In this document: positions 13,789 to 16,791 of the stretch, in pieces | Layout: the number at the start of each line of letters is the position of its first letter | Position numbering within the stretch: the stretch's first letter is position 1 | NCBI GenBank assembly: GCA_032718865.1 | Contig: JALUTQ010000033.1 | Span: 682,001-746,000 of the forward strand | Source of the DNA: Tilletia caries | Taxonomy: Eukaryota > Basidiomycota > Exobasidiomycetes > Tilletiales > Tilletiaceae | Direction: 5' to 3' | Length of the DNA: 64,000 bases | The notes under the pieces: model-generated | The model's input: only the letters and a program-made list of their open reading frames with translations | Told to the model about the DNA's origin: nothing | The model's database searches: none | Translations under genes and position numbers: made by a program

Positions 13789-14168
13789 ATCAGAGCTGAG
13801 CGCTGCTTGCTTCTCCCTTGTTTCGGCGGCCGTCGGCAGTCGGCAGTCGGCTTGTGCCGTTGTGCGCGTGTGAGGAAGCGGTGGAAGCTGGAAGACGTGG
13901 AGGTCAAAATAAAAAGCTTGCGGCCGCCTCTCTGGTCTCTTCTCTCATTTGGAAGAGCCGAACTCGGATCCAGCAGCACGGAACGCGATACGCGACGCAG
14001 GAACGCCGAGGAGCGCGTCGCGTTGCGCCACGTGTCTTCCCACGTGCTCTCGTTTCTTCGTCTCCGCTCTCCGCTGCCCCGTGCAACATTTTTGTGGCTG
14101 CCAGGTACGAGTAGGACAAGGACAACCGCGACGAAGAAGAACCTCCTCGCGTCGCTTTGAGAGAACAG
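13789..14168. promoter_or_regulatory. Divergent promoter region, FCP1-like / NUC1
   Basis: About 380 bp between two divergently oriented starts. It must contain both promoters; no TATA box or recognised operator stands out. Confidence 0.5.
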
Positions 14169-15915
14169 ATGTCGGGATCACTGTTCCACGCTGGCCTCTT
14201 CGCTGGCGGCTTGCTCGTCGGAGCGGGCTCCACCATTGCTCTCCTCAAGAATCAGCAACAGCAGCAGCAGCAACCACTGAAGACACCGCCTCAACCAGTT
14301 CTTCTAGCCACAACAACAACAACACCGTCTCTCTCTCCCTCCTCAAGAGAGAGTACCAACAGCGGCGCGATCATCCCACCACCAGGCGCACTCGCATCCG
14401 TACTCCTCCAATCAGACATCCTCCGACCCTCAGGATACCCAGGCCCGATCTCAGACCTCCTCCCACAAACCGTCTTCCTCTCCTCCTACGACCGCAGACT
14501 CAGACACCCACACTGGACAGCAGAACACCTCACAGCAGCCTCCCTCGCCCGCGCACCCTCCGCACCGGGCTCATCAGCGCCCACAGACAAGCCCGATCGC
14601 TCCCGCTCCGTCTTCAAGGAGGATGAGCGGATCCCGGTGGCCTTCCGCGCTCGACTTGCGGACTACTTCCGGTCTGGGTACGATCGCGGCCATATGGTGC
14701 CCGCAGCTGATGCGAAGATTTCTCAGCAGGCCATGGACGAGACTTTCTTGCTGACCAACATGGCACCCCAGGTCGGCGCTGGCTTCAACCGCGACTACTG
14801 GGCCCATACCGAGGACTTCGTCAGGCGCTTGACTACTTCCTTCGCCGATGTGTACGTCTTCACATTGCCGCTGTACCTGCCCCGTCAGGCGGTGATCAGT
14901 TGCGGGCGCGCGCTCAAAAAGGGCGCTCAAACACAGAGCGCGAGGCCCCTCGCGCCGCGCTCTGAAAATCTGCTTCTCAGAGCGCGCGCCCACAACTGAA
15001 CAACGCTTGCGCCGGAAAGTGCGCTCTGCTTTCTCCGGCTCGGCCTCTGCTTTCTCATTTTGTGGTTTGTATTGATTTTTGTGATCAATACAAACGTCAC
15101 GTGATGCTTCTGTAATCGAGCGGGAGCCAGAGCGCGCGCTCGAAGAGGTGGGCCGATCGAAATAGGTCGGCCCAGCGCCGCGCTCAGAACTGAGTGAGGG
15201 CGCTCTGAAATTTTTGGGCCCCCGGCTCTGAAAACGCGGAACTGAACATGCGTGCGCTTTCATGTCGGCCCAAAAAAAAAACAGAGCGCGCGCTCATTTT
15301 TCAAGGTGAGCGCGCTCGCAACTGATCACCGCCTCAAGATCCGGACGGCAAGCATCGCGTCACATACGAGTGAGTTTCTGATTCCTTGTGCCAGCTGTCT
15401 GCGAGAAGTGTTTCACCCCTTTTCATCGATTGACCTTGACGTTGGTTTACAGAGTCATCGGAAACCCACCAAACGTAGCCGTGCCCACCCACTTCGCGAA
15501 AGTTATCCTCGCCAGCGGCAAGCCAAACTCCCGCCCTGCCCTCCCAGCACCACCACCACCACAGGCACAAGGCGCAGCAGGACGCACCCCAGCCCTAACC
15601 ACCACCACCTCCCCCTCCTCCCAAGTCACAGCCCTAGACCCATCCTACCTCGGCCTAGCAGCATTCGTGATCCCAAACGCAATCATCCCAAACAACACCC
15701 CACTCCAAGTCTTCGACGTGCCCCTCGATGCCGTCGAGCGTGCGTCAGGACTGAGTCTGTTCCCAGAGGCGATCAGGGGGAAGGCGAAGCATCTCTGTCA
15801 GTTGGTTAAGTGTGATTTGGTCGTTAGGGAGTTTGCCGATCGGGCGGCTGCGACGGCGAGGGGGAGCGCGCAGGGGGCGGTGCCTGGTGCGAGGCCGGGC
15901 AGTCCTGGGCGGTGA
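14169..15915 (+). CDS. NUC1: Mitochondrial endonuclease G (DNA/RNA non-specific nuclease), coding sequence interrupted by a TIR element
   Basis: The start is ATG at 14169; the frame upstream has only TTG. Residues 4-25 form a hydrophobic N-terminal anchor as in yeast Nuc1. The His-Me finger motif YDRGHM is at about 171-176, with LLTNMAPQ and FNRDYWAHTE (metal Asn and Glu) downstream. After PLYLPR, at 14888, a 446-bp TIR element intervenes. Coding resumes at about 15339 with PDGKHRVTYE, then a normal intron 15370..15452 (GTGAGT...TTACAG), then VIGNPPNVAVPTHF and the EndoG tail LQVFDVPLDAVERASG to a stop at 15913-15915. If the insert is not removed, translation stops at 14999 inside it. If 14884..15338 is spliced as a GT-AG intron the frame is restored with two residues fewer. 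Family role: mitochondrial nuclease in mtDNA turnover and cell death. Confidence 0.85.
14888..15333. mobile_element. 446-bp non-autonomous TIR element in NUC1 (introner-like candidate)
   Basis: The ends are perfect 17-bp inverted repeats, GGCGGTGATCAGTTGCG at 14888 and its complement ending at 15333. They are flanked by the 3-bp direct repeat TCA (14885-14887 and 15334-15336). The interior has no coding capacity and is full of GAGCGCGCGCTC-like palindromes. Removing the element and one TCA rebuilds an uninterrupted EndoG reading frame. The flanks also supply a GT (14884) and an AG (15337-15338), and the right TIR holds a CTGAT branch-site consensus 13 nt before that AG. TIR plus 3-bp target duplication suggests a DNA transposon derivative (PIF/Harbinger- or CACTA-like); the superfamily is not determined. 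Confidence 0.85.
15370..15452 (+). other. Ordinary spliceosomal intron of NUC1
   Basis: 83-nt intron, GTGAGT donor and GGTTTACAG acceptor, lying inside the conserved junction RVTYE / VIGNPP. It is an internal control for normal splice signals in this gene, for comparison with the element just upstream. Confidence 0.9.
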
Positions 15916-16791
15916 TCTGCGAGGGCTCGCTGGATGGAGAGAGGGGATGGGTGCAGTGTCCTATAGACACTCCGTCCTACCTCCCTTCGTTCGACGGCGC
16001 AAATGCACAACTCTTAAGCTTATCACTCTTCCTGTTCAAATCGCGGTGATACGAAGGCGACTTGGGATGCAGCTGTGCAGGACCATGCACACCGACCCTT
16101 CTGTCATTTGCCAAGGCAGCAATCAGCATCGTCTGCCTTTCTGAACCTCGAGATAAGAAGAGGTTCCTGCGTGCTGCGTTCAGGTCCGCTCTGCTTGGCG
16201 CCAGCAGATGGAAGGACAGCACCCGCGTCTTTGTTCTAGCCTCTCCCGACTTCCAGGCTTCCAGCGCGTGACTGGCCGGACGAGATCCATGCTGGCTGTG
16301 GATGCACACGACGGACGACGATCTTGACTCCAGACGCCCACGAGGTGGGCATGCCAGGCACGAGCCCAGGCACACGTGGCGCTGTCATGCGTCATGCACT
16401 GGGAGCCTAAATCTCGCGTGCTCACCTTCCATTTGTTTGTTAAAATCTCATCTGCTTCCACCGCTTACCGCTTCCCCTCCCACCCACCAATTTTAAGACT
16501 CACACCTTCGAACCTGTCCGCGTGTCCGCCCTTGTGCTGTTGCACATGCCTGAGCCATCCCCTTCTGATGCTCCATGCTGTTGAGGGCGCGACGAACGAT
16601 GGACGGCTCGCGATCCATTTGGGTTGCGACGCGTCCACGCCGCCTCTCCTCTGGAAACAGGAAAAGAACAGGATTCCGGGGCGCACAAAGCAGGGAACCG
16701 GTCCACGGGATCGGATCTCATTTGCGGCAACTTCTCAAATCCCACCGTCATGCTGGAAAAATAATGAAAGGCTCAATCTCGCGGCTCGCCT
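15916..16791. other. Intergenic DNA downstream of NUC1
   Basis: About 875 bp with no ORF that looks coding and no recognised RNA. It presumably holds the NUC1 3' UTR. The right end abuts the non-autonomous element. Confidence 0.5.

What the first reader, a model, noticed from the sequence alone, without database searches (positions are those of the whole stretch)
14884..15338. A TIR transposon insertion in NUC1 that comes with a ready-made intron (introner-like element)
Seen: a 446-bp element with perfect 17-bp TIRs and TCA duplications sits inside the EndoG coding sequence. The target sequence supplied GT just left (14884) and AG just right (15337-15338), and the right TIR contains CTGAT, a branch-site consensus 13 nt before that AG. 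Splicing GT...AG removes the element plus 6 nt of gene and keeps frame exactly, joining PLYLP to PDGKHRVTYE. The donor GTCAGG resembles the GTCAGT used by KRE33 here. Established: introners in several eukaryotes are non-autonomous DNA transposons that co-opt flanking or TIR sequence as splice sites. Inference: this is intron birth caught early, or a fresh knock-out if splicing fails.
Basis: partly seen in the sequence, partly recalled or inferred. Interest (0 to 1): 0.88.

Follow-up and report, generated by a model that had tools for sequence, protein, structure and literature searches.

The report
Harbinger MITE inserted in fungal NUC1
A recently active miniature DNA transposon has landed inside the nuclease gene NUC1 of a wheat bunt fungus; flanking GT and AG letters could in principle let the cell splice it out, but the rest of the transposon family does not behave like an intron maker, so it is more likely a simple gene disruption.

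Summary
A 446-bp element (14888-15333) with perfect 17-bp TIRs and TCA duplications interrupts NUC1/EndoG. The element is a Tourist-like PIF/Harbinger MITE: 29 near-full-length copies at 98% identity or more, 3-bp mostly TNA duplications, and 3.9-kb relatives with a DDE_Tnp_4 transposase. NUC1 exon 1 is single-copy. T. controversa and three other Tilletia species encode the uninterrupted protein, so the insertion is derived and recent.

The introner reading is not supported. At the stricter cut-off 2 of 42 insertion loci score as coding (NUC1 the only clear one), against 52% of TNA sites in the window and 40% in the same loci. Frame-keeping GT...AG geometry occurs at 6 of 84 copy-strands, against 4.8% of random TNA sites. 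The proposed donor ranks 9th of 33 local GTs; the best lies inside the element. The branch site sits in the TIR stem. The spliced protein would turn RQD into H, shortening a loop that is 9 residues in 117 of 120 homologues and never 7.

Exact splicing is not excluded (about 12%). TNA beside GG termini makes GTNAGG after any G, a real pre-adaptation. RNA reads would settle it.

The parts
14169..14887 (+). NUC1/EndoG coding sequence left of the insertion (ATG to the left TCA)
   Evidence: PF01223 E 2.5e-43 for the ORF 14169-14999; 239 residues identical to the start of P0001
14885..14887 (.). left target-site duplication TCA
14888..15333 (+). 446-bp Tourist-like PIF/Harbinger MITE
   Evidence: genome copies; ends shared with 3.9-kb DDE_Tnp_4 elements
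14888..14904 (+). left TIR GGCGGTGATCAGTTGCG
15317..15333 (-). right TIR (perfect inverted copy), contains CTGAT
15334..15336 (.). right target-site duplication TCA
14884..14889 (+). proposed donor GTCAGG, 9th of 33 GTs in 14701-15460
15337..15338 (+). proposed acceptor AG (CAAG), branch-like CTGAT 13 nt upstream
15306..15311 (+). strongest donor-like site of the interval, GTGAGC, inside the element
15337..15369 (+). NUC1 coding sequence right of the insertion, to the native intron
   Evidence: PDGKHRVTY matches P0001 from residue 242
15370..15452 (+). native 83-nt NUC1 intron (GTGAGT...TTTACAG)
   Evidence: inferred from the sequence and the match of both neighbouring exons to P0001
15453..15915 (+). 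last NUC1 exon, including stop TGA
   Evidence: one residue differs from P0001, V/A at 337
14169..14999 (+). open frame if the element is retained: 276 aa, against 404 aa uninterrupted

Best explanation
A non-autonomous Tourist-like PIF/Harbinger MITE, of a kind mobilised in trans by 3.9-kb relatives in the same genome, recently inserted at a TCA in the NUC1 coding sequence of this T. caries strain. Shown: element, duplications, family, transposase-bearing relatives, single-copy exon 1, uninterrupted protein in other Tilletia. Inferred: most NUC1 transcripts keep all or part of the element or are mis-spliced, giving a protein cut at about residue 240 plus some 36 foreign residues. The last third of the nuclease domain would be lost, so this is a loss-of-function or strongly reduced allele. 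The GT and AG at its edges arise because the TNA duplication next to GG termini makes a GTNAGG string wherever a G precedes it.
For: Family: 29 near-full-length copies at 98% identity or more among 71 listed matches, many of the 71 being TIR-only. TSDs: 38 of 43 copies have identical 3-bp duplications, 34 of 43 are TNA. Long relatives with the same TIRs share 204 and 136 bp with the MITE; two of them (L031, L032) carry DDE_Tnp_4 at E 7.6e-12, and L031 shows LDGTH, GDAGF and, downstream, SVIERIF. NUC1 exon 1 has one match in the assembly. P0001-P0005 of four Tilletia species read PLYLPRQDPDGKHRVTYE. Copies avoid coding-like sequence: 2 of 42 at cut-off 8 against 51.7% of 1500 window TNA sites and 40.5% of 526 TNA sites in the same loci. 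Splice geometry: 6 of 84 against 229 of 4812. Retained element stops the frame at 276 aa; that product covers profile positions 8-151 of 223.
Against: The one clear coding insertion is frame-keeping at a geometry that only 5.5% of coding TNA sites offer; this could be survival of the one tolerable insertion. The branch score for 15338 ties with the best near the element, and GTCAGG is within the range of predicted introns (30th percentile). The RNA ends pair, bringing GT and AG close. No transcript data were seen.
Confidence: 0.72

Rival explanations
1. The insertion is a new functional intron: the spliceosome uses GT at 14884, CTGAT in the right TIR and AG at 15338, leaving NUC1 active with RQD changed to H.
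For: Frame is kept. GTCAGG scores at the 30th percentile of 37 predicted introns, and CTGAT scores near the native branch site (6.07 against 6.19). Ends are held together by TIR pairing; fold z -11.2. Only 5.5% of coding TNA sites would allow it this closely. Introners that take splice sites from flanking or duplicated target sequence, and that add or delete codons, are described (PMC9860276, section 7 read).
Against: Donor is 9th of 33 nearby; GTGAGC at 15306 is far stronger (6.68 against 1.15) and GTGATC at 14892 is stronger too (2.56). The acceptor has A at -3. At 455 nt it is long against predicted introns, though that set was capped at 130 nt. The branch site is inside the TIR stem. The loop is 9 residues in 117 of the best 120 homologues, never 7. 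The family avoids coding-like sequence.
Confidence: 0.12
2. Partial or cryptic splicing: sites in the element (for example donor 15306, donor 14892, or an acceptor at 14980) are used, giving mixed transcripts and a reduced allele.
For: Stronger donors than 14884 lie inside the element and there is a TTCTCAG acceptor at 14980, 97 nt from 14884. My ab initio gene finder chose the AAG|GTGAGC donor with a 147-nt intron to the native acceptor.
Against: Based on scores from ab initio introns; no transcripts seen.
Confidence: 0.15
3. Assembly or sequencing artefact.
For: Near-identical repeats can be misplaced in assemblies.
Against: Perfect duplications flank the copy, and the other copies have flanks of their own. 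The published assembly used Nanopore and Illumina reads (PMC10684912, abstract and passages seen).
Confidence: 0.01

Closest known systems
PIF/Harbinger superfamily, Tourist-like MITEs (such as mPing)
   Same: 3-bp duplications, short TIRs beginning GG, internal deletion of a longer relative, relatives with a DDE_Tnp_4 transposase
   Different: Duplication is TNA (TCA, TGA, TAA, TTA) rather than the TAA/TTA that I recall for plant Tourist elements; a second Harbinger protein was not identified by Pfam
Introners of Gozashti et al. 2022 (PMC9860276; abstract, passages and section 7 seen)
   Same: Non-autonomous DNA transposon with TSD and TIR; could take both splice sites from flanking sequence; would delete codons
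   Different: No shown splicing, no set of copies acting as introns, family depleted from coding-like sequence, no clear preference for splice-compatible sites
Fungal introner-like elements (PMC4457414; search listing with the start of the abstract only)
   Same: Fungal repeats connected with intron gain
   Different: Those are described as multiplying introns; this is an identified transposon found mostly outside coding-like sequence

Membership tests
PIF/Harbinger (Tourist-like MITE) | 3-bp target-site duplication | tested here: met
   38 of 43 copies have identical 3-bp duplications, 34 of 43 are TNA; the five without a match are L010, L018, L029, L038 and the composite L040
PIF/Harbinger (Tourist-like MITE) | Terminal inverted repeats shared with a longer element | tested here: met
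   Same 17-bp TIRs at 3.9-kb spacing, one mismatch in one TIR of L033; MITE shares 204 and 136 bp with their ends
PIF/Harbinger (Tourist-like MITE) | DDE_Tnp_4 transposase with D, D, E | tested here: met
   PF13359 E 7.6e-12 in L031 and L032; LDGTH and GDAGF, SVIERIF downstream in L031; whole protein and activity not verified
PIF/Harbinger (Tourist-like MITE) | Second element protein (Myb/SANT-like ORF1) | tested here: inconclusive
   The one candidate tested, a 144-aa ORF in L031, has no Pfam match
Introner | Multiple copies are spliced introns in coding sequence | tested here: not met
   2 of 42 loci score as coding at cut-offs 8 and 10, 6 of 42 at cut-off 5; only NUC1 remains after the models; splicing itself not testable
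Introner | Consistent recruitment of splice sites relative to element ends | tested here: not met
   Frame-keeping close GT...AG at 6 of 84 copy-strands against 4.8% of 4812 random TNA sites; any close GT...AG 13 of 84 against 13.5%; G before the duplication 13 of 84 against 25.6%
Introner | Removal shown by RNA | not testable with these tools
   No RNA reads available

The most novel reading that the evidence does not exclude
PIF/Harbinger elements are built to make introns. A TNA duplication beside GG termini yields GTNAGG after any G, the other end yields NAG before any G, and this family's TIR supplies a CTGAT branch site on both strands. The NUC1 copy would then be the first working intron of a young introner family, kept because it alone among coding insertions could be spliced.
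Probability: 0.12. Interest if true: 0.65.

Novelty: new member of a known kind. Interest (0 to 1): 0.32.

Why it matters
It gives a recent, within-genus test case: a near-identical transposon copy in one gene, an uninterrupted protein in a sister species, and a definite predicted junction. If spliced, it would show intron birth before selection has tuned it. If not, it shows how GT-AG geometry misleads: it arises at about 5% of coding target sites by chance. Either way it documents a recently amplified Harbinger MITE family in a bunt fungus.

Tried and rejected
A first ab initio gene finder ran away into one 210-exon gene and was discarded; a second with higher intron cost was used only for a rough look. 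A third setting, run on each flank apart, gave a wrong two-exon model on the NUC1 left flank, so its other models are rough too. A strict intron motif search gave 6 introns, a looser one 23. The donor model used 37 ab initio introns of 45-130 nt, not validated by RNA and including doubtful ones, so its ranks are approximate.

Possible coding or intronic copies were checked. L029 had coding-like sequence on both sides in one strand, but its left ORF matches Tilletia proteins of 233-312 aa and a complete one-exon model of about 330 aa ending before the element, so the copy probably lies between genes. L005, flagged by the score, lies about 120 nt outside a predicted gene. L003, L042 and L048 lie upstream of predicted genes with Tom37 (below its cut-off), RRS1 and Gaa1 matches. 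Of 24 distinct flank ORFs sent to Pfam, 5 had any match at 0.01.

Rfam gave no match in 14000-16500. Paper searches on Harbinger/MITE with intron gain, Tilletia with MITE, Harbinger or introner and transposons as new introns listed nothing on this family in the 15 rows shown of each; PMC9860276 has no 'Tilletia' or 'Harbinger' in its main text. PMC10684912 counts 52 Tourist/Harbinger matches in this assembly, in the passages seen without describing a family.

Not done: structure prediction, the third protein search, and any survey of this site in other T. caries strains (no collection of fungal DNA is held).

Full report
What is there. The window lies in contig C28 of a 38,104,258-bp, 40-contig genome. 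Contig C7 is 2,689,501 bp and C36 is 1,798,756 bp; these equal the largest contig and the N50 reported for Tilletia caries TC1_MSG in PMC10684912 (abstract and passages seen). The paper gives 46 contigs and 38.18 Mb, slightly more than held here. I take it as that strain. The element at 14888-15333 is 446 bp, with perfect 17-bp TIRs and TCA on each side. It sits in a gene with an Endonuclease_NS domain (PF01223, E 2.5e-43) whose T. controversa form P0001 matches EndoG and EXOG of known structure.

The ancestral state. P0001 (404 aa) agrees with the window's exon pieces except at residue 337, V here and A there. P0001-P0005, from T. controversa, T. indica, T. horrida (two) and T. maclaganii, all carry PLYLPRQDPDGKHRVTYE across the site. 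No GT...AG intron can restore that exact sequence here, because the 449 inserted bases, in any register allowed by the TCA repeat, do not start with GT and end with AG (from the sequence). So P0001 most probably reflects an empty site, and the insertion is derived. NUC1 exon 1 has one match in the assembly. The copy is identical over 446 bp to two others of the 43 copies compared (L002, L006), so the event is recent.

The family. The genome search listed 71 matches, many of them TIR-only, with 40 of 90 first-look candidates scored, so counts are lower bounds; 29 near-full-length copies have 98% identity or more. The TIR pattern with up to 2 mismatches occurs 74 times forward and 75 reverse, against 0 and 0 for the reversed-pattern control. 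Of 43 copies with both ends, 38 have identical 3-bp duplications and 34 are TNA. Three 3.9-kb elements (L031-L033) share the TIRs; the MITE corresponds to about 204 bp of one end and 136 bp of the other. L031 and L032 carry DDE_Tnp_4. LDGTH and GDAGF are found in L031-L033, in one frame in L031 and L032; SVIERIF follows downstream in L031. A genome search with that protein gave 66 matches. This is a Tourist-like PIF/Harbinger MITE family. I did not identify the second Harbinger protein.

Do copies behave like introners? I examined 42 insertion loci. Left out were three duplicate views (L004, L014, L021) and five with one end or complex structure (L039, L043, L044, L045, L050). A rule asked for a stop-free stretch of at least 60 codons touching the insertion with coding-like codon use. 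At cut-off 5 it flags 6 of 42 loci, against 65.9% of 1500 random TNA sites in the window; at 8, 2 of 42 against 51.7%; at 10, 2 of 42 against 43.9%. TNA sites more than 500 bp away in the same loci were flagged at 50.8%, 40.5% and 34.4% of 526. At cut-off 5 the rule found 94% of 489 positions inside long window ORFs on at least one side, 67% on both. The codon model was trained on those same ORFs, so the window figures favour themselves; the same-locus control is fairer. TNA is also rarer in window ORFs (3.1%) than elsewhere (4.5%), which sampling at TNA sites allows for. The two loci at the stricter cuts are NUC1 and L005, and L005 lies outside its predicted gene. So NUC1 is the only clear coding insertion. 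This fits insertion between genes or removal of coding insertions by selection; it does not fit a family that is generally spliced out harmlessly.

Is the GT...AG geometry special? Within 5 nt on each side, 5.5% of 939 coding TNA sites offer a frame-keeping pair; in 3.6% the donor also has A, C or G at +3 and G at +5; with 30 nt allowed, 46%. Across the family, 6 of 84 copy-strands have the close frame-keeping geometry (four expected), against 229 of 4812 null sites; any close GT...AG is 13 of 84 against 13.5%; G before the duplication is 13 of 84 against 25.6%. Copies not flagged as coding (L008, L015, L024) have the same geometry with donors GTAAGG or GTGAGG. The reason is simple: TNA next to GG makes GTNAGG whenever G precedes it.

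Would it splice? With a donor model from 37 ab initio introns, GTCAGG at 14884 scores 1.15 (30th percentile of those introns; 8.1% of plus-strand window GTs score as high) and ranks 9th of 33 GTs in 14701-15460. GTGAGC at 15306 scores 6.68, the native donor 3.49 and GTGATC at 14892 scores 2.56. For 15338 the branch score is 6.07, close to the native 6.19; some other AGs share the 6.07. Folded alone, the 455 nt give -239.2 kcal/mol, z -11.2; the TIRs pair, bringing the ends together but placing CUGAU in the stem. Splicing as proposed would replace RQD by H and shorten a loop that is 9 residues in 117 of the best 120 of 2428 homologues, with single cases of 8, 10 and 11.

Verdict. Transposon insertion: practically certain. 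Loss or strong reduction of NUC1 in this strain: most likely, by inference. New intron: possible, about 12%. The effect on the fungus is unknown.

Noticed in passing
L031 5683-6645 (-): 320-aa ORF beside a 3.9-kb Harbinger element with Cas12f1-like_TNB (E 1.7e-12) and a weak OrfB_IS605 match: looks like a Fanzor/TnpB-like protein (the name Fanzor is recalled, from no call).
   Followed up: partly
L047 1829-2708 and L048 1789-3124: Near-identical MITE copies lie next to a 74%-identical relative; in L048 the relative is between two new copies, suggesting nested or neighbour insertion.
   Followed up: partly
L042 and L048: Copies lie roughly 140-160 nt upstream of predicted starts of genes with RRS1 and Gaa1 matches, so the family may affect promoters.
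   Followed up: partly
window 15306-15311: The element carries AAG|GTGAGC, the strongest donor-like string of the region, which could compete with the native NUC1 donor at 15370.
   Followed up: partly
L031 3-1499 (-): Open stretch with an NDC10_II domain (E 3.8e-45) reaching up to the Harbinger insertion.
   Followed up: no
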